Of a stretch of 64,000 nt of DNA, positions 1-60,046 are shown piece by piece. The notes beneath the pieces are model-generated. The model searched no databases, had not been told where the DNA came from, and saw only the letters and a list, made by a program, of their open reading frames with translations. The stretch is from the IMG/VR virus record IMGVR_UViG_3300009151_009564, positions 1-64,000 of that record, one strand, 5' to 3'. A program made the translations under genes and the position numbers. This stretch comes from a virus. Positions within the stretch are counted from its first letter, which is position 1. Each line of letters begins with the position of its first letter.

Positions 1-480
1 TTAGTAAGTTTTTTGGTTAAATCTATAGGATCCCCTATAGTTGTTTATTTTAGATAAAAATGAGTGAGTCATGTTTCCATTATGGATCATTGGGTCAGAA
101 TTTCGCCATCCTAAAAACATATCTTCAACTGTCTTTGGTATATTACCTCTTCGGTAATAATCGAATATGTTAGTTACTTCATGACCGTCTCCAACTTCAT
201 TAGTAGACTCATTTCTAATGTGATTTGCATCAACGTGATTGATTTGATCGTCATCAATCCAACCTATTTGGTATCGGTCTTTACCAAAAAACCCTGGTTG
301 CTTCTCAAGATACAAAATCTTTTCCTTCCCGGTTTTAAAACCTTTAACAAGGATTCTGTATTTTTCTATGTCTTTTACACGCATAGTTTCCCAACTTGAC
401 TTACCAAGTACGTAGGTATCAATGTATTCAAAGTCCTCTCCAAAGTTAAGAGAGTGTTTAGGTAGAAATTCTATTATCAT
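1..480 (-). CDS. Hypothetical protein, 159 aa
   Basis: I do not recognise this protein. It is complete in the window: ATG at 480 and TAA at 1-3. It is soluble, rich in Tyr, Asn and Asp, with no signal peptide, membrane segment or clear motif. It follows the 103-aa gene by one base on the same strand, so it is probably the distal gene of the unit that starts with the DNA ligase. Codon use (AT-rich third positions) matches its neighbours. Confidence 0.7.
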   Translation of the reverse strand: MIIEFLPKHSLNFGEDFEYIDTYVLGKSSWETMRVKDIEKYRILVKGFKTGKEKILYLEKQPGFFGKDRYQIGWIDDDQINHVDANHIRNESTNEVGDGHEVTNIFDYYRRGNIPKTVEDMFLGWRNSDPMIHNGNMTHSFLSKINNYRGSYRFNQKTY

Positions 481-30972: not shown

Positions 30973-32139
30973 ATGTGGTTAAAAGAGGAGGAAGAATATT
31001 TACTTAGTTATTATTCTTCGATTGATAATATAATCTTGGAAAAAAAATTAAATAAAAATATAGGTTGTATAGTCAGAAAAGCTAATTCAATGGGATTGAG
31101 GAAGTCAAAAGAGTATATCTCATTAATGAAGAGGAAAATAAACCCAAAATTATATTGGAATGATCGTGATTTGGATTATTTAGTCAATAATTATAAACAA
31201 AAAAGTAATAGTGAAATATCTGATTATCTTAAAAAAACGAAAAGATCTGTTTGTAGAAAATTAAAAGAGCTAAATTTAAGAAGGACAAAGGATGAAAAAG
31301 ACTTAATAACATCAAGATTTTGTAAAAAATCAGGACGTGATTTAAATTTTGAATTCGTTAAGAATGAAGCTCTCAAATATTCCAGTAAACAAGAATTTTA
31401 TATATTAGATTCTGGTTCCTATTCAGCATCCATTCGTAATGGATGGTATGATGAAATATGTAAACACATGAGGAAGAAAAAACAAAGTATTCCCCAATTG
31501 ATGTTAAAAGATATTTTAGAAAAAATTCTAAAAACCGAATGTAGTTTTAATAATAGAAAAATTATATACCCAAAAGAAATTGATTGTTATTTTGAGGAAT
31601 ATAAAATGGGATTTGAATATGACGGAAGATATTTTCACTCTAGTCCGGATATTGAAAAAATAAAAATTTGTGAGAATAAAGGATTAAAAATATTCATAAT
31701 AGATGAGAATAATGATATTTATAGAAATTATGAAAGAAATATAAAAACTCAACTAATTAAAATATTACCTGAGATAAATAAAATTACTAATTTAAGTATA
31801 AATATAAATGATATTATAGAATATAAACCTGTCATCAAATTTGATGATGTGTTGGATTGTGAAGAAATAGAATTTGTTTTTGGTAAAAAAATGTCTTTAA
31901 TAAAATCGGAAAATGTTTCGTTATACAATAGATTAAAAAGGTATAAATTTAATATTTCTGATTTAGGTATAATAAATGATGATAAGAAAATAAAAAAGTT
32001 TAAATCTCTAGAAGATTATATGTTTTTTTTAAAAAAAACATATAATTCTTTTACGGAGGCTTCAAAAATCGAACATGTTTATAGAAATGCTATAAAATAT
32101 AATATTAGTATATTAGAAATTAAATCCATATGGACTTAG
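30973..32139 (+). CDS. Homing endonuclease, EDxHD/VSR-like, 388 aa
   Basis: Order of parts: two Myb/SANT-like helical repeats at about 1-45 and 57-100 (WLKEEEEYLL, WNDRDLDYLV), one KYSSKQEFYILDSGSYSASI repeat near 137-156, then a PD-(D/E)XK-type nuclease core YPKEIDCYFEEYKMGFEYDG with downstream FHSSPD and IFIID, as in the EDxHD homing endonucleases related to VSR repair nucleases. The C-terminal 130 residues are unassigned. Strongly A-rich codons, unlike the flanking RNA ligase. Inserted between the RNA ligase and the tail protein gene. Confidence 0.8.
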   Translation: MWLKEEEEYLLSYYSSIDNIILEKKLNKNIGCIVRKANSMGLRKSKEYISLMKRKINPKLYWNDRDLDYLVNNYKQKSNSEISDYLKKTKRSVCRKLKELNLRRTKDEKDLITSRFCKKSGRDLNFEFVKNEALKYSSKQEFYILDSGSYSASIRNGWYDEICKHMRKKKQSIPQLMLKDILEKILKTECSFNNRKIIYPKEIDCYFEEYKMGFEYDGRYFHSSPDIEKIKICENKGLKIFIIDENNDIYRNYERNIKTQLIKILPEINKITNLSININDIIEYKPVIKFDDVLDCEEIEFVFGKKMSLIKSENVSLYNRLKRYKFNISDLGIINDDKKIKKFKSLEDYMFFLKKTYNSFTEASKIEHVYRNAIKYNISILEIKSIWT

Positions 32140-32175: not shown

Positions 32176-35100
32176 ATGGCATCAACATTATTTTCAAAAC
32201 CTATAGTATCTAAAATACCTACATCGACTTTAACTAAAAATACGACTTATTTAAAATCTATTGCTAATAAGCAAAGTAAGTTCTATAGTTCAAAGATCCT
32301 TAATTATGTTGAGCCTGTTAATATTGGTTCTTTTGTAAAAACTGCGTTTTGGAGCGAGATCAATACTAATTTTAACTATGGTGATACTGTATTTATAATC
32401 AATGGTAATTATGACTCTGATAGTCTAATATCAGTTGATAAATATGCTCCAAATACAACTGGATATAAAGTATTGGGAGTTGACGGATGTAAGATCATCT
32501 TGGATATTGATTATACAGGAGTTCTTCCATTTCAAGATACAGATGTTGAGCAATATATTAAAGTAAATCATATCTCTTCTCAAAGACAGTTTGATTATAT
32601 CAATAGTATATTAACTCCTATTAATGTTACTCCATTTAGTGGAATGTATTCAAAATTCTTTGGTAACGTTCCTTATGGTAGTTTGACTGCTTCATTATAT
32701 ACAAATGATATAATATTTTCTTCTGGTACTTTTAGTGGAAACACATCTTATAGTGGTATAGGAGTAGGTTTTTTTGTTAGGGATGATTCATCAACTAATA
32801 CATGGGTAAACATTACTTCTCAATTTTTAGATAATAGATTAGGTGGTGTTAATCCAGACTATACAAACGATGGTAGAATTTATATTGTTGGTGAGGATTT
32901 CACATACAATGGTACTGATTATAAACAAAGATTGGTATATGAAGACGTTAATAATAAATGGATTATAGACACGGTTTATAAACAACCAATAATATCTAAG
33001 TTAAATTTTAGATATGGTACATTTAAGGGAACACATAATGATGGTGTATTTGGTAGTGAGAATAAAGTCGCAACGTGGAATAATGCGACTTGGAATTCTG
33101 GTATATTAACAAATGCCACATGGAAGTCGGGTTCAATGAACTCAAAGTCTAATACCGGAGACCGTTCATATTATTCACATTTAAAAAATGGTAAACCAGT
33201 TCAAACATCGGATGTTTCAAATAACAATGGTTATGGGTATAACTTTATAATAGATTCTGATGTTCAGGGTGGTACATTTTTAAATGGGTTATTTGACAAC
33301 TGTAATATAGGTTTATCAAGTACTTTTTCTGCCCTTGATTCTTACTTTGGTATTACTCAATCACCTAGTGTTTCTATTAAGAAAGGACAGTATACTCTTT
33401 GTAATATAACTGACTCAAGTCTATTAAATGGTTTATTTACTAATACGGATATAAACAATACTAATATTGTAAACTCCAAGATAGTTAATAGTCAACTTAA
33501 TAAGAGTACAGTTGATACAAGTGACTATAACTCTGATAGTGGTATACAAGTAATAGGTGCTGATATATGGTCATATGATTCAAATCCTGGTATTTCTGGT
33601 ATATCTCCAGATATATCTACTACAATAAGAGGTATTTTAAAACTTTACATATCTGCGAAAGATTTATTTAAGTTAATCCCCGGTGATAGTTTTTATATAA
33701 CTAAACTAAATAAGGATTATGTATTATCGTCATTAACAAATGATCAAAAAGTTTATTTGCCAATAGAAACAAGATATACTTTAGATACTTATTTTGATTC
33801 AAGTTTAAGCTCTAAGACTATAACAGTTAGTTTAAAGACTAAAATGGATAATATATGGAAGACTTATGTTACTGGTACAACAACTACTGTTAATACATTA
33901 GTATCAAATAGTCAAGTATATGATTCAATTGATATTGATTGTAGTGATTTTGGATATTACTATTCTACATCAGGTAATCCAGTTTATAAGTCGTCTATCC
34001 TAGGTCCAATTAATCTATCTGATGTTAATAACTTATTTTCTAATACTTATTTATATGACTCTGATTTTAAAGATGGTATTTTCAATAACTCTAATTGGAT
34101 TAGTGGTAATAACTTAAACTATCAACAAAACCAAATTAAGAATCTTACGTCTGATGTATTAGACATTTCTTTATACACTTCATTAGATTCATTTATAGTT
34201 AAACTAAACTATGATCCAATGAATAGTGCTTATTCTATTCCTAGTTTTGATACTATTAACGGTGAGTATGTTTGGTTAAATAATATTACATATGTAAATG
34301 GTACTTTTAGTGTATCACTTGATGGTAGATATAAAGTTAACGGTTTGGATAGTCATCTTCCACCATTTATTGCTCCTTACTGGGTTTCTTTAAGATTGTT
34401 CCCACAAGACACTACAATGTCTGCTTTGGGGGTTACATCTAGTGCGGGATCTTATAAGGTAATAGGTGCTGAAAATAATACTTATGCTTCTATTGATAAG
34501 TTTATCATAAAGAACTCTACAATAAGTTCTGGTTTATTTAAGAAAACTGGTATTGTAAATAGTATAGTATCAAGTAATGAATTTGATAATACTGATACCA
34601 ATTTGGTAATATCAAATAATAACATACTTAGGTTTATTAATATTATATTCAGTACCAATAAAAATACTATTAATGATGGTGTTATTTATAAGTCACACGT
34701 AATAAACACAACTTGGAATAATGGTGTTCTATTCAATAGTATTTGGAATGGTCCTTTATTTAGTAATGGGGTTGTTAAATCAAGTTATTGGTTAAATGGT
34801 ACATTTAATAGTGGTAAGTTTTATGATAGTGGATTAACATCCTCTATTGTTCTTGATTATGACTCTGTATCAAGATATCAAGCTTGGTTAAATGGTACAT
34901 TTAGTATAGGTGAGTTTTATAACTCAGTCTGGTTAAATGGTACTTTTAATAATGGTCGTTTATATAAGTCAACATGGTATGGTGGTATATGGAATAATGG
35001 AGTATTAGGTTCTAATAATCTTAGTTTATCTGATACTACATTTGGTACACTTGCTCCTCTTCCTTATTCAGCTACGGTGAGTTATTGGAATAATGGTATA

Positions 35101-38100
35101 GTAGAGAATGCTCTTGTTGGTGGTGATGGTTTAGTTTACTGGTATGGTGGTAAATTTAACAAAGGTGAGTTTACTAGTAATGGTACGTCATCTACTAACC
35201 AGTCTATTTGGTATAATGGTGATTTCAATGGTGGTAAGTTTACCAACTTAGCTAGATGGAAAGGTGGTAACTTCTTTAATGGTAAGTTCTTATCATATTA
35301 TGGATATAATAATGTATCTCCTACTAACTTTTCTACATATTCAACTGATTATGGATGGGAAGGTGGTAGTTTCTATGGTGGGGTATTTGGTAATGCTAAT
35401 ACGGGTACTAACTCTGTTTGGTATTCTGGTGACTTTAATGGTGGTATATTCCAAGGAAGATTTTGGAATACCGGATTATTCTACAATGGTACATTCTTAG
35501 GTAGTGGTAGAGTTAGTGCGACTCCTTCTTCAGTATCATCTATAGGTGAGTTTGATTTTGCTAACTCATTTACATCATCGTATTATGGTTTATGGAACTC
35601 CGGATATGTTTCTGATAAAAAGTATGAGGTTAAGACTAAAGAAAGAGTGTTTACTCAGTTGGTAAGAAAGGTAGATGAGAAGAAGATAAATATAAGTGTA
35701 AATATGTCAAATGTCTTATGGATGGATGGTATGTTTAATCACAACTTTGGTAATATACAAGATTCATTATTCATAGGTGGTACTTTTTCTAATGGTCAGT
35801 TTACTCGTGGGGTATTTAATCCTTATATAGATCAAAACTTTACTGGTTCATTCTCTAGATCTTCGTTTAATACACAATCTTGTGTATGGACTGGTGGTAT
35901 ATTTGCTTCAGGTTCGTTCTATTATTCAGAGTGGCAAAATGGTATATTCCAAGATGGATATATGTCTGGTGCTATTTGGGATAATGGTCTTTGGAATTAT
36001 GGATCTGCTGATAATATTTACTGGAAAGGGGGTCGTTGGAGAAATGGTAACTGGAATGGATCTCCTTATGATTCAACATTAATATCGACATATTCTACTC
36101 CTAATATAATGAAGAGTGGTAGGGAAAAAGATTTGATATTGAATATATCAAATGCCTTAGGTACATCGTCAATACATATAATAAATGTATTTAGTGCTTC
36201 AGTGACTCCTATACAGATTTTATCTGATATACCAGTGGGTTCATTGGGTAGTACAGGAAGCTGGACTTATTCACATGAAACTTATTATGGAGTATTATAT
36301 TATAGTGGGTTTGCGGGGACTCCACACTATGATTACCTTGCTTGTTCAGATTGGAGAATTGGTTCTACATTTAGTTATATTACCGCAACAACGTCAACAT
36401 CTATATCAACTGGTGTTGTGACAGATTCAAATGCTTATACTAAAGGGGGTACTATGTCAGCATCGAGTGGATCATCTTCATATGACTCCACTAATAGGTA
36501 TTATGGTTATAATATAAATGCGACTGCATCGGCAAATACACCACCAAGTAGTAAGTTATATGCTGTAAAAAGTTCTGGAGGACCCACTACTAGTGTGTTT
36601 GTCGATACCGCAACAACTTATACTGTTAAATTACAGGTTACGGTTGAGTTAACGCCAACAGTTTCTATTGAAGTTGGGTATGGTGGTAGTGTACAAACAT
36701 TTACATTATCGTCAGACCATTGGGGTTGGACAACTAATACTACTGGTTATTCATATCTTGGTGTACCATATACCATAACCAACCACTACGATTATTATTA
36801 TCCAAAGTTATATAACTTAACATTCACTATTAACACAACAGACGCTTCTCTTGCGTCTCCGGGTGGTCAACAATTTTATATTAAGAAGACATCCAATGGT
36901 ATAATGAGGTTATTAAGGGGAGAGATTACCGAAAGGTTAACTGAGTATCATGATACTTATAATAATACATTATATAATGGTATAGTTGGATCTACAGTAT
37001 CTCTACCAAATGATAATCATTTGGCTTTGACCGCAGGTGCGTCTGATGGTAATGTCGTAAGTATTGCTTATGGTAATGGTGTTTTCCAATCTGGAATTTG
37101 GGAGAATGGTGTTTGGAATAATGGATATAGGGCTTCTGATTGGTTTGGAACAAGTGATACATTAATATTTAGTGATGTTAATCAAAGTATGACATATCAA
37201 ACGGACACGTCAACTGCTTGGAAAAAGAACTGGATCATAACCTTAGTTTCGTTAGGTTCTATGAATAGTTTATCCATAGGTGATAAAGTATCCATCGGAA
37301 ATATTGTTGGTATTAATATAAATGGTAGTAGAGTTCTTATAAAAGATTACTATACAATAGTAGATATTAATAACACAGTTTCAACTGATTGGCCTAATGG
37401 TTACCTTAAAGTAAGTTTAACTACAAACTTCCCATTAAGACAAATTGTTAAAGACTCATCATATCACCTTATATATGTAACTAAAAATGTTTGGTTGTCT
37501 GGAGCGTTCTTGAATGGTTATTTTAGAGGAGTATGGAATACTGGATTATTCCAAGGTTATCCAAACATAACAGAGATGCAGGACACTCACTGGATTGATG
37601 GTAAGTTTAATGGAGGTCATTACATTTCAAATAATGTACCAGCTAGTCTTACATTACCTTCATATAATACTGGTGTAATACAAAACTTTACATTTATAGA
37701 TAGAAATATAGCTGATCCTTATAACTTCTTATACGAATCTTGGATTGATGTAAATTATACAGCTGATTCACAATCTAATTTGTATCAAGATACTATCTAT
37801 TGGGAGCAAGGTACTGGTTATTATTCTATTAATGGTGTTAGTAGTAAACCAAATCTTAATGGTTTAATTACATACGATGTTTTATCTAGCTTATCAACGT
37901 TTAGGAATGGATATGATACTAGTAGTAAGGATTATAGTTTAGGTGTCAAGTGGACAAAGTATGATAATTATTTACCAGAAGGAAGCTTTAATAACCTCTT
38001 TAGTAAAAGTATACATTCACTTGGTTTAGATAACTTCTATAACGACGGATGGGATATACAATCGTGGGCACAAGGGTCGACTGGGGTTTCAGTTTTAGAT

Positions 38101-38886
38101 CTTGGTATTTATGGGTCTTGGAGTTTATATCCAGAAGATTTTGTCCTAGAGAATACAGATAATACTTTAAAATATATATCAAGTACACATGCGGAGGTAT
38201 ATAGCACCGGTGGGGCGACTGCTTGGCCATCTTCTGCAATACAGACTTATACAATATTGAAAAATTCAAATACTACCAATATACCAGTTAAAAGGTATTC
38301 TATGATGGAGTATAATTTGATAAGTTTCAAAGGATTTACCGGACCGGATCCTGTTCCGGGTGGATATAATCACGCTAGGAGTGTACATAATAGTCCTTCT
38401 TTCTATCCACCTGCTATTAACACACTTTCATTCCCAGCTACTTGGTCTATAAGTCAGTTAATTGCTAATCCAGTGTATAGTTCAGATCCTATAAAGAGAG
38501 AGTATTTTTATAACAAACACTCTTTATCAATGATGTTTGTCGGTGGTGGTATAGCAACATCACCAGCTGATTATTATCCACTTACAATTCAGATGGATAA
38601 CTTATCATTCTATGAAGTAGATATGATTCCATTCTTCCAATATTTTGTTGCTTATGATGAGTATGCGAATACTTCATTAGCTATTGATATGGCTATTAAA
38701 ACACCATACTCAGCAGTTGCTCCACATATTGATTATGGTAGTGGAGCATTTAGTTTCATTGGTACAGTAGATATTGTTATTGATTCCTCTGGGGTTGTAT
38801 CAAGTGGAGCAGGTTCAGTTGGTGGTTCAACTTTAGGGACAACAACAACCACATGGACTACATATTTATCAGCTCCTACTTTTTGA
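32176..38886 (+). CDS. Giant repeat-rich virion protein (probable tail fibre/adhesin), 2236 aa
   Basis: Dominated by many short repeats of the form W-x-[NG]-G-x-[FW]-x-[NS]-G-x-[FLW], for example WLNGTFNSGKF, WYNGDFNGGKF, WQNGIFQDGYM, WKGGRWRNGNW. They begin near residue 295, are dense at about 850-1300 and return at about 1635-1815. The pattern suggests a repetitive beta-hairpin or beta-solenoid shaft built from stacked NG turns. Between them are non-repetitive domains (about 440-820, 1310-1630, 1850-2236) that may be receptor-binding heads. No signal peptide or membrane segment. Ends with TGA TAA in tandem and overlaps the convergent DnaJ-like gene by 11 bases. Confidence 0.8.
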   Translation: MASTLFSKPIVSKIPTSTLTKNTTYLKSIANKQSKFYSSKILNYVEPVNIGSFVKTAFWSEINTNFNYGDTVFIINGNYDSDSLISVDKYAPNTTGYKVLGVDGCKIILDIDYTGVLPFQDTDVEQYIKVNHISSQRQFDYINSILTPINVTPFSGMYSKFFGNVPYGSLTASLYTNDIIFSSGTFSGNTSYSGIGVGFFVRDDSSTNTWVNITSQFLDNRLGGVNPDYTNDGRIYIVGEDFTYNGTDYKQRLVYEDVNNKWIIDTVYKQPIISKLNFRYGTFKGTHNDGVFGSENKVATWNNATWNSGILTNATWKSGSMNSKSNTGDRSYYSHLKNGKPVQTSDVSNNNGYGYNFIIDSDVQGGTFLNGLFDNCNIGLSSTFSALDSYFGITQSPSVSIKKGQYTLCNITDSSLLNGLFTNTDINNTNIVNSKIVNSQLNKSTVDTSDYNSDSGIQVIGADIWSYDSNPGISGISPDISTTIRGILKLYISAKDLFKLIPGDSFYITKLNKDYVLSSLTNDQKVYLPIETRYTLDTYFDSSLSSKTITVSLKTKMDNIWKTYVTGTTTTVNTLVSNSQVYDSIDIDCSDFGYYYSTSGNPVYKSSILGPINLSDVNNLFSNTYLYDSDFKDGIFNNSNWISGNNLNYQQNQIKNLTSDVLDISLYTSLDSFIVKLNYDPMNSAYSIPSFDTINGEYVWLNNITYVNGTFSVSLDGRYKVNGLDSHLPPFIAPYWVSLRLFPQDTTMSALGVTSSAGSYKVIGAENNTYASIDKFIIKNSTISSGLFKKTGIVNSIVSSNEFDNTDTNLVISNNNILRFINIIFSTNKNTINDGVIYKSHVINTTWNNGVLFNSIWNGPLFSNGVVKSSYWLNGTFNSGKFYDSGLTSSIVLDYDSVSRYQAWLNGTFSIGEFYNSVWLNGTFNNGRLYKSTWYGGIWNNGVLGSNNLSLSDTTFGTLAPLPYSATVSYWNNGIVENALVGGDGLVYWYGGKFNKGEFTSNGTSSTNQSIWYNGDFNGGKFTNLARWKGGNFFNGKFLSYYGYNNVSPTNFSTYSTDYGWEGGSFYGGVFGNANTGTNSVWYSGDFNGGIFQGRFWNTGLFYNGTFLGSGRVSATPSSVSSIGEFDFANSFTSSYYGLWNSGYVSDKKYEVKTKERVFTQLVRKVDEKKINISVNMSNVLWMDGMFNHNFGNIQDSLFIGGTFSNGQFTRGVFNPYIDQNFTGSFSRSSFNTQSCVWTGGIFASGSFYYSEWQNGIFQDGYMSGAIWDNGLWNYGSADNIYWKGGRWRNGNWNGSPYDSTLISTYSTPNIMKSGREKDLILNISNALGTSSIHIINVFSASVTPIQILSDIPVGSLGSTGSWTYSHETYYGVLYYSGFAGTPHYDYLACSDWRIGSTFSYITATTSTSISTGVVTDSNAYTKGGTMSASSGSSSYDSTNRYYGYNINATASANTPPSSKLYAVKSSGGPTTSVFVDTATTYTVKLQVTVELTPTVSIEVGYGGSVQTFTLSSDHWGWTTNTTGYSYLGVPYTITNHYDYYYPKLYNLTFTINTTDASLASPGGQQFYIKKTSNGIMRLLRGEITERLTEYHDTYNNTLYNGIVGSTVSLPNDNHLALTAGASDGNVVSIAYGNGVFQSGIWENGVWNNGYRASDWFGTSDTLIFSDVNQSMTYQTDTSTAWKKNWIITLVSLGSMNSLSIGDKVSIGNIVGININGSRVLIKDYYTIVDINNTVSTDWPNGYLKVSLTTNFPLRQIVKDSSYHLIYVTKNVWLSGAFLNGYFRGVWNTGLFQGYPNITEMQDTHWIDGKFNGGHYISNNVPASLTLPSYNTGVIQNFTFIDRNIADPYNFLYESWIDVNYTADSQSNLYQDTIYWEQGTGYYSINGVSSKPNLNGLITYDVLSSLSTFRNGYDTSSKDYSLGVKWTKYDNYLPEGSFNNLFSKSIHSLGLDNFYNDGWDIQSWAQGSTGVSVLDLGIYGSWSLYPEDFVLENTDNTLKYISSTHAEVYSTGGATAWPSSAIQTYTILKNSNTTNIPVKRYSMMEYNLISFKGFTGPDPVPGGYNHARSVHNSPSFYPPAINTLSFPATWSISQLIANPVYSSDPIKREYFYNKHSLSMMFVGGGIATSPADYYPLTIQMDNLSFYEVDMIPFFQYFVAYDEYANTSLAIDMAIKTPYSAVAPHIDYGSGAFSFIGTVDIVIDSSGVVSSGAGSVGGSTLGTTTTTWTTYLSAPTF

Positions 38887-40642: not shown

Positions 40643-40973
40643 TTATAATAGTATTTATTTGACGTTCCCGAATAGTTTCTAATAGATCTTTCATTTCATG
40701 AAGTCTTAAATTAATTGGTAGTCCATTTTTCTCATAGATCATTTTTTCTTTATCACGTAACTCTGCAGCTTTTTGAAACTGCATTTCTTTAACACATTTA
40801 TTCTTTTCCAAATAAATATCACGAATTTCCTGTAAAGTAGTAATAGGTACTTTACACAACATATCTAGTATGTCTTCTTCATTCATCTTAGAAGAATCTT
40901 CTAAAAGATTTGGTGGAGAAATAGTGAGTGAATATGTAAGACCTGAGATATTTATAGTTGTTGTTTTACTCAT
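40635..40973 (-). CDS. UVR-motif-like protein, 112 aa
   Basis: N-terminal beta segment (TTTINISGLTYSLTISPP), helical middle, then a UVR-like motif EMQFQKAAELRDKEKMIYEK at about 63-82. Ends RERQINTIISE, matching the C-terminus of the downstream paralog. The two probably arose by duplication. Function unknown; UVR motifs usually mediate protein contacts. Confidence 0.68.
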   Translation of the reverse strand: MSKTTTINISGLTYSLTISPPNLLEDSSKMNEEDILDMLCKVPITTLQEIRDIYLEKNKCVKEMQFQKAAELRDKEKMIYEKNGLPINLRLHEMKDLLETIRERQINTIISE

Positions 40974-41025
40974 ATAATAATCTATTTAATTTAATTTAGA
41001 CTTATAAATTTATCTATTATTTCCA

Positions 41026-43005
41026 TTATTGAAAAAGTGTTTCTAATCTTAAATCTCTACCTTCAGTAGTTACATATTCATTGATAGTAGTGAATACTTC
41101 TTTGTTAATATTCAATATTCTATCAAATAACTCCTGATTTAAAATAGCGTGATGTACTACAAATATATTAATATTATAATCATTAGCAAAAGATTTTAAC
41201 AAATTAAGTATATCTTCACATCCCTCAATATCTATGGAAGAAAAAATCTCATCCAAGAAGAGTATATTAATATGTTTCTTTGTCCTTATTAATTTTAGGT
41301 ATGCAATGAGTATAGATATGTTTATTTTCTTTGTTTCTCCGCAACTTAATGTATCATGATCCACTATATTTCCAAAGTTCTTAATCTGAGCCGTAAATGT
41401 TTCATCCAATTCCACTTGAAATGGTAACCTCATTTTCTTAATATTCTCACTAATAAAGAAGTTAATAGGTTTAATAATACCAGATATAATACTACGTTTA
41501 ACACCATCTTCTCCAAAGACTTTAGTTAACTCTTTATAATAAACTTCTTTTTCCTTACAAACAGTTGAATAATCAATACTAATAGACTTCTTTTCACTTA
41601 GTTCTTTAATGGTATCTTCAAACTCAGACATATCAACTGACTTACCCGATTCTCTATCTTTTTGAGTTTGTAACTTCTCAAGTTGGGATTTATAACTCTT
41701 TAATAAGTAAGTAATATCATTAAAAGCTTTATTAGTCTTATCAGACATTTCTTGAAGCTTTGCTTGTTTCTCTCTAATAGATTTAATAGTAGTCTCTATT
41801 TCGGTTCTAATACCTTCTAATGACTTCTTTTTTTCCAATAAGACATCTTTTAGATTATGAAAGTGATCGTTGTCAAAATCAGTGCCACAAGTAGGACATT
41901 TACCAGAATCATAAAGATCAATATCTTTTTGAGCAGACTTAATCTCACCATTTATAGTAATAAACTGTTCTCTTTCCTTATCCATTTCAGATTTAAGTTC
42001 AGATTCCTTTTGTTTTATCTTTTCAACTCTTTCCTTCAAAGCTTGATATTCATCTTTCTTAGACTCCATATCCGTCTTAATTTGATCGATCTCGGATTGG
42101 ATATTTAACTTTTCTTTTTCAAGAGCTTTTTCGATAGACCTTCTTATAGATTCAATAGAGTCATCTAATGTAGATATTTCTGAATCGTATTTAGTCATTT
42201 GTATCTTATTAGCTTTAGCTAAGTCTTTTAGTATCTGGTTTAAGATATTAATAACTTCAAGATTAAATAACTTATCTAATAACAGTTGTTTCTCCTCATT
42301 AGATAAGCTAATAAAGTTTTTGAAGTCATTAATAGACATAGATATAAAAGATTTGAAGGTTTCAATATCCATTCCAATATAGTTTTCAATCTTTTCATCT
42401 ATATTAGCTTTACCCGCCCTATCATTTTCAATTCCGTTTTCGATTAACTTGAGTGTACTTGGATTAATACCACGCACAACTTCCACCTCACTTCCATTGG
42501 ATTTGAATTTGATTTTATTTTGTAACTCGTTATTAATACGATTAGGTAGAGTAGATAGAGTAGCCCACTTTTTCTTCTTCATTGACTTTACGCGCCCGTA
42601 AAGTACATACTCAAAACTTTCAATAAAAGATGAGTTATGACTTACTATACCATTAGAATAATATTCTTCTCCATCCACTTCTATATCCCATAGATCCTCT
42701 ATGTTCGGGTCATGATTTATAGAATTTAATTTTTGATATCCATCTTTTGTTAAAATTTTGTCACCTATATTTAAATCTTCCAAAAAAGTCCAACTATTGT
42801 TTCTAATTACTCTATGTGTTGGTGATCCAGTTATTTCAAATTTTTCTGTTTTAATATTTATCTTACATGAATTCGGAGATGTTATTCCGATATTTTTAAT
42901 CGACTTATATCCATTTTTTGTATCTACTTCAACATTATATTTTTTTAAAATACTAAATTTAGATTGTAAGTTATTTAACTCATTAAGTGATATTTTCAAT
43001 TTCAT
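41026..43005 (-). CDS. C-intein fused to C-terminal part of gp46/SbcC-like recombination ATPase
   Basis: Residues 1-124 are the C-terminal part of an intein: block B GSPTHRVI, then FLEDLNIGDKIL, block F DLWDIEVDGEEYYSNGI, block G VSHN; the first extein residue is S125. Residues 125-659 are an SMC-type ATPase: SSFIESFEYVLYG completes the Walker A begun in the gene at 44511-44804; long coiled coils surround a Rad50-type zinc hook CPTC (in GKCPTCGTDF); signature LSCGETKKINISI; Walker B ILFLDEIFSSID. Joined exteins give about 576 aa, close to T4 gp46 (560 aa), the DNA-end-processing partner of gp47. Function requires protein trans-splicing with the N-half. Confidence 0.9.
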   Translation of the reverse strand: MKLKISLNELNNLQSKFSILKKYNVEVDTKNGYKSIKNIGITSPNSCKINIKTEKFEITGSPTHRVIRNNSWTFLEDLNIGDKILTKDGYQKLNSINHDPNIEDLWDIEVDGEEYYSNGIVSHNSSFIESFEYVLYGRVKSMKKKKWATLSTLPNRINNELQNKIKFKSNGSEVEVVRGINPSTLKLIENGIENDRAGKANIDEKIENYIGMDIETFKSFISMSINDFKNFISLSNEEKQLLLDKLFNLEVINILNQILKDLAKANKIQMTKYDSEISTLDDSIESIRRSIEKALEKEKLNIQSEIDQIKTDMESKKDEYQALKERVEKIKQKESELKSEMDKEREQFITINGEIKSAQKDIDLYDSGKCPTCGTDFDNDHFHNLKDVLLEKKKSLEGIRTEIETTIKSIREKQAKLQEMSDKTNKAFNDITYLLKSYKSQLEKLQTQKDRESGKSVDMSEFEDTIKELSEKKSISIDYSTVCKEKEVYYKELTKVFGEDGVKRSIISGIIKPINFFISENIKKMRLPFQVELDETFTAQIKNFGNIVDHDTLSCGETKKINISILIAYLKLIRTKKHINILFLDEIFSSIDIEGCEDILNLLKSFANDYNINIFVVHHAILNQELFDRILNINKEVFTTINEYVTTEGRDLRLETLFQ

Positions 43006-44681
43006 TTTTCAAATAATTTTTAATTTCTTCTACCGAAGAAGAATATATATGTTTAAGATTACCACTAACACATAAGGTTTTCTTTCTTTTATACTTGTTC
43101 TTATATTCAATGTTGTTGAACATTCCCATATATTCTACATAGCAATCTAATATTGGTATAAAAAAATCACATTTGTAATTTGAATTAGGATATTTTTTTT
43201 CATATTTGTATTCAATATTATTTTCAACTAAAAATCTAGCTATTATAAACTCAGAATCACTTCTACAAAGATGATTATTAAAATATCTCATATTTCCATA
43301 TTTTGATTTTATATAAATAGAAAGGGACATTAAATAATTAAGCATGTCTTCTATAGTACAATTATAGTATGTTTGTATAATTTTATTTTGAATCTTCAAT
43401 GTTATTTCGGTAATGGAAAGGTTTTTACTAACTAAGAAATCTACCAATTGTGTATATGTGTTAAATTTTAACATATCATAAATCTCATTTTTATCTTTAA
43501 ATGAGGTTTCTTCAATAAATTTTGATGGCCAATCTTCTCCATATTTATGGATATAATAGTCAATACTATTTCCTTTTTTATAGAATGGAAATTTCGATAT
43601 TAGATATTTATGTAGATCAATATATTCGATATTGTAAAACTCAGGAATTAATCTATTATGAATTTTAAGAAAAATATCACCAAATGAATATTTCTTATTG
43701 ATTAAATAATCGATCAAATCCATATAATTTTTAAATTTGAGTAAAAATTTAACAAATTCTTTATTCTTTATAGATTGACAATCTATAAATTTTTCTACCC
43801 AATTATCCCCATAATTTTTTTTAAAGTAATCTATAGATTTAGAGTCCTTACCATCTTTACCATTGTAATTAGATTTATATAGAGATTGTAACCATTTTTC
43901 TTGTCTATTTCTCCAGACTATTAACCCTTGTTCTTTTCCATACTTAGAAACACATTTTTCTAAAGAAAATGTGTGTTGTCGTTCAGATAGTTTATTTTTT
44001 GCTTCTTCGATCGAAAATCCAGAACTTAACCAATATTCAATATTTGTAGGTTGTTTTGATTTGATTATATTTCTAAACTTTTCATCTTCTCGATATTTAA
44101 CACCGCGTTTGAAGCTATTTTCAGATTGAAATTCTTTTATTTTAAGATTTGATTCTTCAACAGAAAAACCCCTCGAAGTCCAATATTCCAAATTTGTTTT
44201 TCTTTGGGATTTTATTTTTTTATTTGCCTCTTCTATAGAAAATCCTTTTGATACCCAATACTCTATTCTCATAGGTGATTTATTACCAACAATTGGTTTA
44301 GTTCTTTTTAGTTCAGCTTCATATTCATCCCAACCCCTAGCTATCCAATAATTTATTGATGATTTACCTATTTTAGGCATATTAATTTTCGATTTCATTA
44401 ATCTTATAAAAACAAATTTACCAACCGTAAAATCATCTTCAACAAACATGGAATTATAGAAATATATTTTTGATGGGTGGAACTCCATCAAGTAATTTTC
44501 CAATTGCTTTTTATTTATCTCTATATTTGATATATTCTTCATATAATTTTATGTTTTTTTCTTTTATATATAAAATATATGAACTTTCCTCTCCCATTAC
44601 TTCCAAAAAATATAAAAGATCTTGTAGAGTAAATAATTCTATTGGAATATTAACCTCTATTGTGGTCGATGGGATTAAGCT
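42634..44681 (-). mobile_element. Split intein plus free-standing endonuclease inserted in Walker A of gp46-like gene
   Basis: The N-intein (44514-44681, 56 aa, starting SLIPSTTIEV after the extein GSNGNGK) and the C-intein (42634-43005, 124 aa, ending SHN) flank a separate 519-aa endonuclease gene that overlaps both by a few bases (31 and 22-23). Removing the element joins GNGK to SSF and restores a normal P-loop. This matches the published 'fractured gene' layout, with the split lying before block B. Confidence 0.85.
42983..44542 (-). CDS. Homing endonuclease between the split-intein halves, 519 aa
   Basis: Four copies of a Y-W-x-x-[RKS]-G-[FW]-[SD]-x-E-E-[AS] DNA-binding module occur at residues about 65-76, 95-106, 120-131 and 170-181 (for example EYWLSSGFSIEEA). 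The middle is helical with repeated SIDY motifs. The C-terminus has a VSR/PD-(D/E)XK-like core: LCRSDSEFIIARFLVENN, then YKCDFFIPILDCYVEYMG. It would spread the intein by cutting intein-less gp46 genes. Start and stop overlap the flanking half-genes, suggesting coupled translation. A-rich codon use, typical of mobile endonucleases here. Confidence 0.82.
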   Translation of the reverse strand: MKNISNIEINKKQLENYLMEFHPSKIYFYNSMFVEDDFTVGKFVFIRLMKSKINMPKIGKSSINYWIARGWDEYEAELKRTKPIVGNKSPMRIEYWVSKGFSIEEANKKIKSQRKTNLEYWTSRGFSVEESNLKIKEFQSENSFKRGVKYREDEKFRNIIKSKQPTNIEYWLSSGFSIEEAKNKLSERQHTFSLEKCVSKYGKEQGLIVWRNRQEKWLQSLYKSNYNGKDGKDSKSIDYFKKNYGDNWVEKFIDCQSIKNKEFVKFLLKFKNYMDLIDYLINKKYSFGDIFLKIHNRLIPEFYNIEYIDLHKYLISKFPFYKKGNSIDYYIHKYGEDWPSKFIEETSFKDKNEIYDMLKFNTYTQLVDFLVSKNLSITEITLKIQNKIIQTYYNCTIEDMLNYLMSLSIYIKSKYGNMRYFNNHLCRSDSEFIIARFLVENNIEYKYEKKYPNSNYKCDFFIPILDCYVEYMGMFNNIEYKNKYKRKKTLCVSGNLKHIYSSSVEEIKNYLKNEIENIT

Positions 44682-44804
44682 TTTACCATTACCATTAGAT
44701 CCGGTTAAAAGAATAAGTTCTCCCTTTTCAGTGTTTAGTTTAATGGTTTGTTCGTTATTTCCAAAGGATTTAAACCCTTTAATAGTTATTTCATTGATTA
44801 ACAT
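44511..44804 (-). CDS. N-terminal part of gp46/SbcC-like ATPase fused to N-intein
   Basis: Residues 1-41 are the ATPase N-terminus: MLINEITIKGFKSFG and the start of Walker A, LLTGSNGNGK. Residue S42 begins the intein (block A SLIPSTTIEVNIP). The intein part is 56 aa, shorter than canonical N-halves (roughly 90-100 aa), so the split lies unusually early. Alone the product cannot bind ATP properly. Overlaps the upstream 181-aa gene by seven bases and the downstream endonuclease by 32. Confidence 0.88.
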   Translation of the reverse strand: MLINEITIKGFKSFGNNEQTIKLNTEKGELILLTGSNGNGKSLIPSTTIEVNIPIELFTLQDLLYFLEVMGEESSYILYIKEKNIKLYEEYIKYRDK

Positions 44805-45343
44805 TTATCATCATTATTTTCATTGTTTAGAAGTTCTTCTAAATTAGATTCTCTGGATAGTTTAGTAGATATACATATTTCATCAATCTCATTAAGAAAA
44901 GCTTCCCTATGTGACTCTTGTTTAATAGAATTTAAAAAAGGACTAAGTCTATCAAACATTTTATCGTCATTATATGATAGTGGATGTTTAACTGGAGTGT
45001 TTCCAAGTGTGAACATTCCACTTGAGTTATATCGATTTATTCTAAATCCTTTTTTATGGATTATAATATCTATTGTATCATTGCCTATGTGTCCAGTAAT
45101 GGTCATCCTTTCCGATGAAGTAGATGTGGTAAACTTATCGGTTGCTTTACCAGCTCTAATAGCAAACTTATAGAAGTTCTCAGATATTTCTTCATCATAA
45201 TAACTCATAGGATCTTCATATGTAGTAGGGTTAGAGACTGTCAGGTATTTATTACTGGTGGTATAGGGTGAGGTATTTTCTGTACTTTTATTGTACTCAC
45301 TGATTGTTTCTTCGATTATTTTCTTTAATTTACTTTTTTTCAT
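44798..45343 (-). CDS. Hypothetical protein, 181 aa
   Basis: Begins with a basic amphipathic helix (MKKSKLKKIIEETISEYNK). Middle region is beta-rich, including MTITGHIGNDTIDIIIHKKG, perhaps a small sensor-like fold. C-terminus is Asn/Glu/Asp-rich. No family recognised. First gene of the unit that leads into the split gp46 gene. Confidence 0.65.
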   Translation of the reverse strand: MKKSKLKKIIEETISEYNKSTENTSPYTTSNKYLTVSNPTTYEDPMSYYDEEISENFYKFAIRAGKATDKFTTSTSSERMTITGHIGNDTIDIIIHKKGFRINRYNSSGMFTLGNTPVKHPLSYNDDKMFDRLSPFLNSIKQESHREAFLNEIDEICISTKLSRESNLEELLNNENNDDKC

Positions 45344-45375: not shown

Positions 45376-45714
45376 ATGAGAATAAAGAGGTTTAATGAGT
45401 CAAGAAAAGCTACGAAAGTAAATCAAGTTTCCTTTATGGATAAGAAAAGAAATCACATAATGGATGATTTCCTTTCTGTTGAAAGGAAAAAGATTATTGA
45501 AATTTTAATGGATAGAAAGAAAAGACAATATATTCGTTGGTCTTTTAATTCCGATTTTCTCGAAATATGGACTGATAATAACTCCACCGAAGTGGTGAAG
45601 TTAGACGACCTATGGTTTACTGTAATAAGGACAGATAAATGGGGGCAAAATGATTACTTTATCTGTGATGATGAAACCGAGTTATATGACTTTTTGAAGA
45701 ATGAATACTTATAG
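45376..45714 (+). CDS. Hypothetical protein with capsid-targeting-like start, 112 aa
   Basis: Begins MRIKRFNESRKA, similar to the short starts on other probable late proteins here. The rest is Trp/Asp-rich (WSFNSDFLEIWTDNN, WFTVIRTDKWG) without known family. Isolated plus-strand gene with its own TTTAATATATA motif; it overlaps the convergent endonuclease gene by six bases. Confidence 0.65.
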   Translation: MRIKRFNESRKATKVNQVSFMDKKRNHIMDDFLSVERKKIIEILMDRKKRQYIRWSFNSDFLEIWTDNNSTEVVKLDDLWFTVIRTDKWGQNDYFICDDETELYDFLKNEYL

Positions 45715-46773
45715 GTTACAATTTTTTATTGTATTATAATTTTTATCTATTATGAATAAAAAATTATAACCATTTAATTTTGAATATTTTTCTTTGGCTA
45801 AATTTTTGTCTAAATCAACACTGTATGTATAATTAGATTTAACCTCAATTATCAAATTATATTTTTCTATATAAAAATCTGCATGATAAACATGTTTTTT
45901 ACCATTTAATTCATATTCTAATGAAGGACCATTTGAAACTAAATCTATAATATTACTTTCTTGACAATAATTCAAAAAATCTAATTCATATGTTCCCTGA
46001 CTAAATAATTCTTCATTATAATAGGTTATCTTATAAGCCGATAATAACATCTTTTCAAAAATCTCTTTTCTTTGCATTGGATGTTCCACACCATATTTTT
46101 CCAAATAGTTCTCTTTATATGCAATGATTTGTTTATTGGATATTTCTTTATTCTGACTAGGATTTTTAACACCATAGTTTTTAAAACAAGTCTCTTCTTT
46201 CTTCTTTTTTATATCTAATAATTTTGAAACATTATTAACACCATATTTGAATAATAAATCCTCATACATTTTATTTTTTATAACATCTGATTGTAAAGGA
46301 AACTCAAATCCATATTTATTTAACATACCGTTTTTAACTTTATCTCTTAATTTAAGACCGTTTTTAACACCGTAATTTTTTAAACATGTTTCTATTTTTT
46401 TATCTTTTATACTTTGTGATTTAGAAGGATTATCAACACCATAATTTTTAATAAAAGTTTGTTTCTTTTTTTCTTGCCAATTTGAATTTAAAGATAAATT
46501 ATTTTTCTTCATCATTTCGGTTCTTTTTAATAATCCACATTCCTTACATGAATAAAAACTATTTCTTTTAATATTTTTTACATATTTAGCATATTGAATA
46601 TTATATTCATTTTTACATAAATCACAAATAACATCTATTTTTTGGTTTGATACCTCTTTTAAATCTACAATTTTAAATTCAACCTCTTTTTTACTTAAAT
46701 CATATCCTAAATTGGAATAATTTTGTTTTAAACCTGACGATACTTTTAATTTTATTGTTTCATTTTTTATCAT
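45709..46773 (-). CDS. Homing endonuclease with YGVxNPSQ repeats, 354 aa
   Basis: A treble-clef-like zinc site near the N-terminus (CDLCKNEYN ... CKECG), then about six repeats of the K-[NE]-Y-G-V-x-[NH]-P-x-[QK] type (KNYGVDNPSKSQ, KNYGVKNPSQNK, EKYGVEHPMQRK), a module common in phage endonucleases, and a C-terminal PD-(D/E)XK-like core YHADFYIEKYNLIIEVKSN. Start placed at 46773 (MIKNETIKLK), because the longer frame runs back into the RuvC-like gene and a TTTAATATATA motif lies four bases upstream of it. Inserted directly after the RuvC-like gene. Confidence 0.78.
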   Translation of the reverse strand: MIKNETIKLKVSSGLKQNYSNLGYDLSKKEVEFKIVDLKEVSNQKIDVICDLCKNEYNIQYAKYVKNIKRNSFYSCKECGLLKRTEMMKKNNLSLNSNWQEKKKQTFIKNYGVDNPSKSQSIKDKKIETCLKNYGVKNGLKLRDKVKNGMLNKYGFEFPLQSDVIKNKMYEDLLFKYGVNNVSKLLDIKKKKEETCFKNYGVKNPSQNKEISNKQIIAYKENYLEKYGVEHPMQRKEIFEKMLLSAYKITYYNEELFSQGTYELDFLNYCQESNIIDLVSNGPSLEYELNGKKHVYHADFYIEKYNLIIEVKSNYTYSVDLDKNLAKEKYSKLNGYNFLFIIDKNYNTIKNCNL

Positions 46774-46777
46774 AAAG

Positions 46778-46788
46778 TATATATTAAA
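46778..46788 (-). promoter_or_regulatory. Phage-type promoter motif of the endonuclease gene
   Basis: Exact minus-strand TTTAATATATA, four bases before the ATG at 46773, overlapping the stop codon of the upstream gene. Confidence 0.5.
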
Positions 46789-47479
46789 AGTTCCAACTCC
46801 TGTCGAGGATATTATACAAAATCCTTGCATCATTTATATCTTCAAATGGCTTAGGGACTTTCGAGAGCGACATTATATCAGATTTTAAATTTCTACATAA
46901 GTTAACCCACTCGTCTACTAGTTCATCATTATCAACTATTGCTAAAAACATCTCTCTCTTTGTAAAGTTACCACCAGCAACCCCATCATTATTTTTATAA
47001 ACCCACTTTTCTTTCTTCTTACCTATGTTAATTGGTTTGTAAGTAAGTTTACAAGCTTCTTGTTTTAGTGAAGAAGGTGATAAAACTAATATGTCTTTAG
47101 TAACATAATCCCATAACTTCTTTCTTAATAAAGTTGAAAATGCCACCAAATCTATTAGATCTCCAGCAGAAGAACCAAAAGAAAATCCTTCAATACCGAC
47201 TTTAGTTTCTTGATCCTTATCTATATTTTCTAATATATCACTGATAATCATATCAGTGATTAAGTCATAATCTTTTAATTTAGTTAGTTCACCTTCTGAA
47301 TAGTTTTCAAAATGACGGTAAGTAATATATCTTAACTCCATTTTTCCTTCACAAAGTTTAAACCATTTACTAAGTCCACTTTTATTATTTGCGTCACTTT
47401 CACGACAATAGTTAAAAATTTTACCATTTACTACTAAACCAGTTGAGATTAAACTGGGATCTATTCCTATTATATTCAT
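46784..47479 (-). CDS. RuvC-fold Holliday junction resolvase-like protein, 231 aa
   Basis: RNase H-like fold with RuvC pattern: MNIIGIDPSLISTGLVV (D7), VGIEGFSFGSSAGDLIDLVA (acidic E near 96), KDILVLSPSSLKQEAC, and a late acidic DINDARILYNIL (D near 217). Cuts four-way DNA junctions during recombination and packaging, replacing T4 endonuclease VII. About 60 residues longer than E. coli RuvC, mostly in the middle. Works with the gp46-like and UvsX-like proteins encoded nearby. Confidence 0.82.
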   Translation of the reverse strand: MNIIGIDPSLISTGLVVNGKIFNYCRESDANNKSGLSKWFKLCEGKMELRYITYRHFENYSEGELTKLKDYDLITDMIISDILENIDKDQETKVGIEGFSFGSSAGDLIDLVAFSTLLRKKLWDYVTKDILVLSPSSLKQEACKLTYKPINIGKKKEKWVYKNNDGVAGGNFTKREMFLAIVDNDELVDEWVNLCRNLKSDIMSLSKVPKPFEDINDARILYNILDRSWNF

Positions 47480-50540: not shown

Positions 50541-51593
50541 ATGACTAAACAAGAATTTTTAGATAGAGCGAGAGACGTTCATGGGTATAAATATCAGTAT
50601 CCAAATTTACCAGATAAGGTATTATCAAATAATACTATTGATATTGTATATCAAGGAGTTTCTTACAAACAAAAAGTTGTTAAACATATTTTATTGGGTA
50701 GGTGTCCGGAAAAGAATACACCGACCAAAACAACAGAACAATTTATATCAGAGGCAAAGGAAGTATGGGGTGATAAGTATGATTATTCGTTATCTGAATA
50801 TACTGGGGCATTAAATAAAGTTAAAATCATATATGATGGTATTGTATTTGAACAGGTGGCTATTTCACATTTAAGAAAATTATCACCGGAAGAGCATATG
50901 AATCTTGAATACTTTAAGAAGAAATCAAGGGATAAGTGGGGAGATAAGTATGATTATTCTTTAGTAGAATATGTTGATTGTAAAACTAAAGTTAAGATTA
51001 TACATAATGGGGTTTTATATAATCAGATTCCAGAGTGTCATCTAATACATGCTCCGGAGAAATTAAATCTTAGAAAAACAACAGAACAATTTATTGAGGA
51101 GTCAAATAGAGTTCATGAGTTTAAGTATAACTATGATAAAACTGAATATAAAAAGAATCAAGTAAAAGTTATAATAACGTGTCTAATACATGGTGACTTT
51201 AATCAAATCCCATTATCTCACTTACAAGGTAGTGGTTGTCCAAATTGTAGTGAGTCTAAGGGCGAAAAGGAAGTATCGAAATTCTTAAAGAAGTGGAATA
51301 TAAATTTTGATAGACAAAAGAAATTTCCGGATTGTAGGAATAAGTTTGAATTACCATTTGATTTCTATATTCCATCTATGAGGACGTGTATTGAGTTTGA
51401 TGGAAAACAGCATTTTCAACCGATGGAATTTTTTGGTGGGATGAAGGCATTTGAGTCTATCAAAATAAATGATAAGATAAAGTCGGATTATTGTGAGGAC
51501 AACTATATTGATTTAATAAGAATAAGATATGACCAGATAGATGATATTCATCAAATTTTGTGGGATAACTTAAAGAATAGGATTAAGAAGTGA
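50541..51593 (+). CDS. Homing endonuclease with tandem GDKYDYS repeats, 350 aa
   Basis: Four tandem modules of about 55 residues (DUF723-like): HGYKYQYPNL, WGDKYDYSLSEY, WGDKYDYSLVEY, HEFKYNYDKTEY, each followed by a V-K-I-I-x-x-G beta unit. Then a zinc site (GSGCPNCSESKGE) and a VSR-like nuclease core LPFDFYIPSMRTCIEFDGKQ with HFQP and IRIRYD. This layout is typical of phage homing endonucleases of the EDxHD/VSR type. Divergent from uvsX; its stop abuts the convergent 142-aa gene. Confidence 0.83.
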   Translation: MTKQEFLDRARDVHGYKYQYPNLPDKVLSNNTIDIVYQGVSYKQKVVKHILLGRCPEKNTPTKTTEQFISEAKEVWGDKYDYSLSEYTGALNKVKIIYDGIVFEQVAISHLRKLSPEEHMNLEYFKKKSRDKWGDKYDYSLVEYVDCKTKVKIIHNGVLYNQIPECHLIHAPEKLNLRKTTEQFIEESNRVHEFKYNYDKTEYKKNQVKVIITCLIHGDFNQIPLSHLQGSGCPNCSESKGEKEVSKFLKKWNINFDRQKKFPDCRNKFELPFDFYIPSMRTCIEFDGKQHFQPMEFFGGMKAFESIKINDKIKSDYCEDNYIDLIRIRYDQIDDIHQILWDNLKNRIKK

Positions 51594-60012: not shown

Positions 60013-60046
60013 AAAAAAATCCTAAATTTCATTTAGGATTTTTTTT
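60013..60046. terminator. Terminator after tRNA-Arg, shared with convergent gene
   Basis: AAAAATCCTAAAT pairs with ATTTAGGATTTTT around the loop TTC; T8 tail on the plus strand and A7 on the other, so it can work in both directions. Confidence 0.85.

What the first reader, a model, noticed from the sequence alone, without database searches (positions are those of the whole stretch)
41026..44804. gp46/SbcC-like ATPase split by an intein inside its Walker A motif, with an endonuclease gene between halves
The N-gene ends in intein block A right after GSNGNGK; the C-gene starts with intein blocks B, F and G ending SHN and continues SSFIESF. Joining the exteins restores GNGKSS and a ~576-aa gp46-size protein with zinc hook, signature and Walker B. 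Between them lies a 519-aa VSR-like endonuclease overlapping both halves. This matches the known fractured-gene / split-intein arrangement. The break lies before block B (N-part 56 aa, C-part 124 aa), unlike canonical splits, and the N-part uses Ser as residue 1. ATP binding, and so recombination, would depend on trans-splicing.
Basis: partly seen in the sequence, partly recalled or inferred. Interest (0 to 1): 0.85.

Follow-up and report, generated by a model that had tools for sequence, protein, structure and literature searches.

The report
Phage repair ATPase split by intein
In this phage the gene for a DNA-repair ATPase is cut in two at its ATP-binding loop by the two halves of a self-splicing protein (intein) with a gene-cutting enzyme between them, so the two gene products almost certainly have to be stitched together after translation; related phages carry the same broken gene or an unbroken one.

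Summary
Confirmed: window 41026-44804 (- strand) holds a gp46/SbcC-like ATPase whose Walker A is broken by a naturally split intein, with an endonuclease gene (EN) overlapping both halves. The exteins meet on adjacent positions of phrog_77; in a census of 41 gp46 loci, 36 are intact at the site and 5 (three distinct alleles) are fractured there. With later finds there are seven fractured gp46/SbcC alleles, all rebuilding GK^[ST][ST]. The C-part folds as a HINT domain lacking only strand 1 (AlphaFold model; best match VidaL), so this is an atypical split, as in VidaL and PolB16. The EN family accompanies such inteins generally: 73 of 80 loci have an IntC-like segment downstream, in terminase, Clp, helicase, clamp-loader and other ATPase genes. 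Trans-splicing is strongly inferred, not shown. A known kind (fractured gene, atypically split intein) with a host gene I did not find in print, and unusual details.

The parts
44682..44804 (-). N-extein: first 41 aa of the gp46/SbcC-like ATPase, ending in the Walker A GSNGNGK
   Evidence: phrog_77 296-337; intact alleles continue GKSS at this residue
44514..44681 (-). IntN, 56 aa, Ser1, block A (SLIPSTTIEV). Last about 25 aa (about 44514-44588) are a tail absent from the 26- and 29-aa IntN of L117 and L120; last 32 nt of the gene overlap the EN start
42983..44542 (-). Endonuclease gene, 519 aa, overlapping the N-gene by 32 nt and the C-gene by 23 nt
   Evidence: family
43868..44056 (-). EN core 'xxIEYWxxxGFSxEEA...RQxTFSxExCxxKYGxExG..W..RQxKW' (about EN aa 163-225), shared with ENs of other fractured P-loop genes; similar YW..G[FW]..EEA repeats precede it
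42986..43312 (-). EN C-terminal nuclease domain (aa 411-519), E...DF...YxEYxG...K, probably divergent PD-(D/E)xK; not the VSR-type end
42634..43005 (-). IntC, 124 aa: strand 2, helix 1, block B (SPTH, aa 61-64), blocks F and G (LWDIEV...SHN)
   Evidence: alignment; AlphaFold pLDDT 79.3; VidaL Z 13.4
41029..42633 (-). C-extein, 535 aa: second half of Walker A (SS), zinc-hook CPTC, signature LSCGE, Walker B ILFLDE
   Evidence: phrog_77 334-954, E 1.7e-65; Rad50_zn_hook and SbcC_Walker_B matched below Pfam cut-offs

Best explanation
The locus is a fractured gp46/SbcC gene. The N-gene product (ExtN-IntN) and the C-gene product (IntC-ExtC) associate: strand 1 carried by IntN completes the HINT fold of IntC; Ser1, the block B Ser/His, the block F Asp and the block G His-Asn drive class 1 (oxyester) trans-splicing onto Ser+1, leaving an uninterrupted 576-aa ATPase with a whole Walker A. 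The EN between the halves is a homing endonuclease that cuts intein-free gp46 alleles at or near the P-loop codons, so that IntN-EN-IntC is copied in as one cassette. Shown by sequence: anatomy, exact rebuilding of the Walker A, patchy presence at one site, conserved coding of IntC. Inferred: association, splicing, DNA cutting, homing. The tail of IntN most likely arose when its reading frame ran on through the N-EN gap into the EN start, which may also couple translation of the two genes.
For: Continuous extein on phrog_77. Seven fractured gp46/SbcC alleles (window, L001, L050, L069, L092, L117, L120) all rebuild GK^SS or GK^TT with no residue gained or lost. Intact alleles at that residue: 19 of 20 and 36 of 41 (35 directly; in L074 the match starts later but upstream reads GMGKSS). 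Profile of four joined inteins hits the solved inteins VidaL 4.3e-10, gp41-1, CatC, Spl DnaX and NrdJ-1. IntC model: VidaL first, Z 13.4, rmsd 2.3, 119 aligned; model residues 1-3..124 align from about residue 11-13 of complete inteins. IntC more conserved in protein than shuffled substitutions allow: 0 of 2000 in all four pairs tested. gp46 tree of 39 rows: intein presence needs at least 4 changes, 0 of 200 bootstraps give one, while inteins cluster by insertion site (9 changes for 7 groups, shuffled mean 32.6). No Rfam match in 40900-45000, so no sign of an RNA intron. No second phrog_77 gene in the 73,524-base record.
Against: No splicing is shown. The three Ser1 alleles have no histidine at all before block B, whereas Ser1/Ser+1 or Thr+1 inteins nearly always carry, and where tested need, the NX histidine (PMC10189870), so splicing may be slow or incomplete. 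IntN outside the EN overlap is clearly constrained in only two of four pairs (trials as high: 0, 187, 5 and 616 of 2000) and its middle extension clearly in none (93, 1319, 94, 833 of 2000). No significant PDB match covered IntN. No IntN-IntC complex could be modelled. Pfam Intein_splicing is below its cut-off (E 0.0063). The record may be a fragment, so another gp46 copy may lie outside it. A patchy tree also fits an old insertion with repeated loss.
Confidence: 0.87

Rival explanations
1. The halves do not splice but assemble non-covalently into a working split ATPase, as described for gene pieces split by mobile endonucleases in T4-like phages.
For: Split NrdA of Aeh1 and 43A/43B of phage 25 work as separate chains (PMC2988022, passages). 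NX histidine absent.
Against: The break is between the Walker A Lys and the following Ser; intein fragments with intact splicing residues would stay attached there; IntC conserved in all pairs tested; splice residues kept in seven alleles.
Confidence: 0.06
2. A decayed intein: the element is a remnant that no longer splices and the gene is dead in this phage.
For: IntN constraint is weak in some pairs; 56-aa IntN longer than described ones.
Against: No stop inside any of the three ORFs in seven alleles; shuffled substitutions nearly always make stops in IntC (1991-1999 of 2000); block residues intact in the four alleles aligned.
Confidence: 0.05
3. The halves are joined at RNA level by an intron or by frameshifting.
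For: Phage endonuclease genes often sit in introns (general knowledge).
Against: No Rfam match up to E 1 in the region; the gap is filled by intein motifs in frame with each extein.
Confidence: 0.01

Closest known systems
[quoted passage not shown] 2009; recalled, paper not held; seen only as a reference in PMC11766414)
   Same: Split-intein halves on separate genes with an endonuclease gene between them, in phage-like genes.
   Different: Host gene gp46/SbcC; split before block B; nuclease end of the window EN differs from the VSR type.
VidaL atypically split intein (PDB 6vgv)
   Same: Best sequence and fold match; IntC starts with strand 2 and helix 1.
   Different: 24-26% identity; IntN 16 aa and cysteine-dependent according to PMC13014065, here 56 aa and Ser1.
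PolB16 OarG intein
   Different: IntN 15 aa and NX histidine needed; the gp46 Ser1 alleles have no histidine there.
AceL-TerL / GOS-TerL / CatC inteins
   Same: Short IntN, in terminase genes; CatC matches the profile at 2.6e-06; phage hits of IntC are mostly terminases (30 of 75 rows seen, 60 of 313 rows seen). GOS-TerL also uses Ser1 (PMC11766414).
   Different: Split after helix 1 according to PMC13014065; other host gene.
P-loop-inserted inteins such as mycobacterial DnaBi1 and P. horikoshii RadA
   Same: Intein inside a Walker A; the RadA intein disrupts ATPase function (PMC6195587 passages).
   Different: Those are contiguous (DnaBi1 is a mini-intein; RadA recalled); this one is split over two genes with the EN between.

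Membership tests
Naturally split class 1 intein | Cys/Ser at 1, block B His, block F Asp, block G His-Asn, Cys/Ser/Thr at +1 | tested here: met
   Ser1, Ser61-His64, Asp107, His123-Asn124, Ser+1
Naturally split class 1 intein | HINT fold | tested here: met
   IntC model pLDDT 79.3; 32 Foldseek matches at E<=0.001, the listed ones inteins or intein-like domains; IntN part not modelled
Naturally split class 1 intein | Ligates exteins in trans | not testable with these tools
   needs expression
Atypically split intein (short IntN) | Break between blocks A and B | tested here: met
   block B lies in IntC; break after strand 1
Atypically split intein (short IntN) | IntN of 15-37 aa (range given in PMC13014065) | tested here: not met
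   56 aa here; 26 and 29 aa in L117 and L120; script-called terminase relatives 40-113 aa. It works like this type but is outside its published length range
Fractured gene arrangement | Endonuclease ORF between IntN and IntC genes, same strand | tested here: met
VSR-type (EDxHD) homing endonuclease | VSR-type C-terminal domain as in phrog_22677 | tested here: not met
   no match for the window EN; L001 3e-23, L025 and L030 match. The link between phrog_22677 and VSR rests on recalled motifs
Cysteine-less Ser1 inteins | NX histidine | tested here: not met
   no His in IntN or in IntC before block B in window, L001, L050
gp46/SbcC ATPase | Walker A, zinc hook, signature, Walker B in one continuous family profile | tested here: met
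   phrog_77; joined extein AAA_23 E 1.4e-08, over its cut-off

The most novel reading that the evidence does not exclude
An endonuclease family with a shared 'RQxTFSxExC..KYG' core and exchangeable nuclease ends is dedicated to atypically split inteins that break the P-loop of phage ATPases, in at least five or six gene families. In the gp46 branch residue 1 changed once from Cys to Ser without the NX histidine, giving natural cysteine-independent atypically split inteins; the one in L001 has no cysteine at all.
Probability: 0.5. Interest if true: 0.72.

Novelty: new variant of a known kind. Interest (0 to 1): 0.62.

Why it matters
A repair and recombination ATPase that cannot have a whole ATP-binding loop until two proteins are ligated is a clean case of a selfish element holding an important gene. 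The allele series (intact; Cys1 with 26-29-aa IntN; Cys1 with long IntN; Ser1 with long IntN) makes two questions testable: how Ser1 inteins work without the NX histidine, and whether the IntN tail helps assembly. PMC13014065 says PolB16 is the only known natural cysteine-less atypically split intein and that more cysteine-less split inteins are needed as tools. The link of one endonuclease family to broken P-loops suggests that a short conserved DNA site is a repeated target.

Tried and rejected
VSR label for the window EN: a profile of the L001/L025/L030 ends does not find it, a profile of the window-type end does. AlphaFold of the whole EN (two-row alignment) failed, pLDDT 45.6, and was not used. 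PD-(D/E)xK assignment of the window-type nuclease is weak: T7 endonuclease I E 0.11, DpnII-MboI 1 of 8 members at 0.0036, phrog_9019 Holliday junction resolvase 8 of 8, best 1.3e-06, 27% identity over 79 columns to the free-standing endonuclease at 50541-51593. A contiguous gp46 intein was looked for and not found: the five in the census of 41 are all fractured. A functional role for the IntN tail: its profile finds only gp46 alleles (L069, L092 and copies of its sources; E 1e-4 and 3.5e-4) but the shuffle test of the non-overlapping part is not convincing, so I leave it open. dN/dS by codon methods was saturated or failed for several regions. EN searches with single proteins or two-row alignments found no further relatives besides L001; the core alignment did. 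The N-side P-loop was rebuilt by a strict pattern in 31 of the 80 EN loci; for the rest the script did not resolve the N-half, and 'TerL' was the default label for IntC rows that met no other rule; only 10 C-exteins were checked against PHROGs. In print: searches 'intein'+'gp46', 'intein'+'SbcC', 'intein'+'Rad50'+'phage'+'split', 'split intein'+'fractured gene', 'intein'+'VSR'+'homing endonuclease', 'atypically split intein', 'split intein'+'Clp'+'terminase'+'endonuclease' (none) showed no gp46/SbcC intein in the listings and passages that I read; only open-licence papers are held, Dassa 2009 is not.

Papers: PMC10189870 abstract and sections 6, 8, 9; PMC13014065 passages and section 4; PMC11766414, PMC7090010, PMC2988022, PMC5259590, PMC3556154, PMC7412058, PMC10638138, PMC7824862, PMC6195587 passages only; all others search listing only.
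Full report
Observation. On the - strand of the window lie three overlapping ORFs: an N-gene of 97 aa (44511-44804), an endonuclease gene of 519 aa (42983-44542) and a C-gene of 659 aa (41026-43005). The N-gene is 41 aa of ATPase ending GSNGNGK followed by 56 aa of intein; the C-gene is 124 aa of intein ending SHN followed by 535 aa of ATPase. phrog_77 (SbcC-like) matches the two genes at 296-337 and 334-954, so the break falls on one place of the family, between the Walker A lysine and the following serines.

Comparison with unbroken alleles. The nearest 20 viral loci include 19 in which the gene is whole, with GK and the next Ser codon adjacent at that point, and one, L001, with the same fractured layout. 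A wider search with an alignment gave 41 loci: 36 whole at the site (35 seen directly; in L074 the reported match starts later but the upstream sequence reads GMGKSS) and 5 with the intein. Three of the five (L050, L058, L065) are identical over the 2601 bases compared, so there are three distinct alleles besides the window: L001 (found again as L047), L050, L069, all fractured. Three more gp46/SbcC alleles came from a search with the endonuclease core: L092, L117, L120, whose C-exteins all start at phrog_77 position 334. All seven rebuild GK^SS or GK^TT.

The intein. The joined window intein matches VidaL in the PDB at 3.4e-06 and a profile of four alleles matches VidaL, gp41-1, CatC, Spl DnaX mini-intein and NrdJ-1 at 4e-10 to 2e-05; those matches cover IntC only. 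AlphaFold of IntC with four rows gave pLDDT 79.3, with strand 2-5 and helix 7-22 first. Its best structural match is VidaL (Foldseek 5.4e-08; Z 13.4, rmsd 2.3, 119 aligned), and it aligns to complete inteins from about their residue 11-13 on. Hence only the first strand segment is missing from IntC and IntN needs to bring little more than that. This is close to the split position that PMC13014065 describes for VidaL and PolB16.

IntN length. The 56 aa exceed the 15-37 aa published for natural atypical splits (PMC13014065). Alleles L117 and L120 have 26 and 29 aa and a gap of about 50 nt before the EN; the long-IntN alleles (56-59 aa) overlap the EN start by 32-44 nt (for L117 the script used an N-gene end 3 nt too far, so its 27 aa there should read 26). 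The simplest reading, an inference, is that IntN ran on through the gap. The tail is recognisably conserved among the long alleles (profile hits only L069, L092 and copies of its sources), but a shuffle test on the part outside the overlap is not convincing. Long IntNs also occur in several terminase alleles as called by script.

Residue 1. Ser1 is found in window, L001 and L050, Cys1 in L069, L092, L117 and L120. In a tree of 70 IntC sequences the three Ser1 alleles form a supported group (100/95) inside a supported group of six gp46 inteins (97/93); the tree has few columns and a midpoint root, and L120 is a long branch outside that group. Ser1 inteins with Ser or Thr at +1 are reported to carry the NX histidine nearly always (PMC10189870); the three Ser1 alleles have none. 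L001's intein has no cysteine, the window's and L050's have one each.

Selection. With the observed number of base changes dealt out at random, IntC protein identity was never reached in 2000 trials in any of four pairs; IntN without the overlap reached it in 0, 187, 5 and 616 of 2000. So IntC is clearly maintained; IntN evidence is mixed, as expected for so few codons.

Mobility. On a gp46 tree of 39 rows (38 of the 41 loci plus the window; L072-L074 left out) intein presence needs at least four changes, none of 200 bootstrap trees needs only one, whereas the inteins themselves group by insertion site. This fits homing at a fixed site, or an old insertion with losses.

The endonuclease. Its N-terminal part (YW..G repeats and the RQxTFS..C..KYG core) is shared by the ENs of L001, L050 and L069. 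The C-terminal domain differs: L001, with L025 and L030, matches phrog_22677; the window, L050, L069, L078 and L092 share another domain with E, DF, ExG and K motifs, probably a divergent PD-(D/E)xK nuclease. The nuclease end has therefore been exchanged within one allele family. A scan with the EN core gave 235 relatives, of which the best 80 were kept. 73 of 80 have an IntC-like segment within 1000 nt downstream; of the other seven, four end at the contig edge and three (L088, L107, L124) have none. By nuclease end, 57 are of L001 type, 10 of window type and 13 of neither. Some of the 80 are copies of one another (for example L084-L086). Ten C-exteins checked (nine of them from these 80, and L078) are Clp ATPase (3), terminase (2), gp46/SbcC (3), DnaB-like helicase (1) and clamp loader (1); L025 looks like PhoH by eye only.

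Mechanism and limits. Trans-splicing is the best explanation because the intein parts are complete, complementary in fold terms, and placed so that splicing restores a whole Walker A; it remains to be shown. The record (73,524 bases) has no second phrog_77 gene but may be a fragment. Novelty: the kind is known; the gp46/SbcC host gene was not found in print in the searches listed under Tried and rejected.

Noticed in passing
window 45709-46833 and 46784-47479 (-): A DUF7487 homing-endonuclease-like gene (E 5.5e-51) overlaps the end of a RuvC-like resolvase gene (phrog_159); possibly another invaded gene.
   Followed up: no
window 50541-51593 (+), 60022-60945 (-), 30973-32139 (+); record 69607-70257 (+): Further homing-endonuclease-like genes (phrog_559/9084/3339; a second DUF7487), so the phage is rich in such elements.
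   Followed up: partly
L031 (Vibrio phage vB_VmeM-32) 3-533, 505-927, 1035-1586 and 1921-2619, 2722-3858, 3830-4996: uvsX split by intein halves with a SegG-like endonuclease, and a gp41-like helicase split with an EN related to this family, side by side in a named phage.
   Followed up: partly
L100, L122, L147, L155: Two IntC-like segments in one locus, joined to sequences that look like the first and second P-loop of a Clp ATPase: one Clp gene apparently broken twice.
   Followed up: no
L097, L111, L112, L136, L143, L127: A second IntC-like segment downstream in or near the terminase gene, outside the P-loop.
   Followed up: no
window 32176-38886 (+): 2236-aa protein with many W-N-G type repeats, likely structural.
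   Followed up: no
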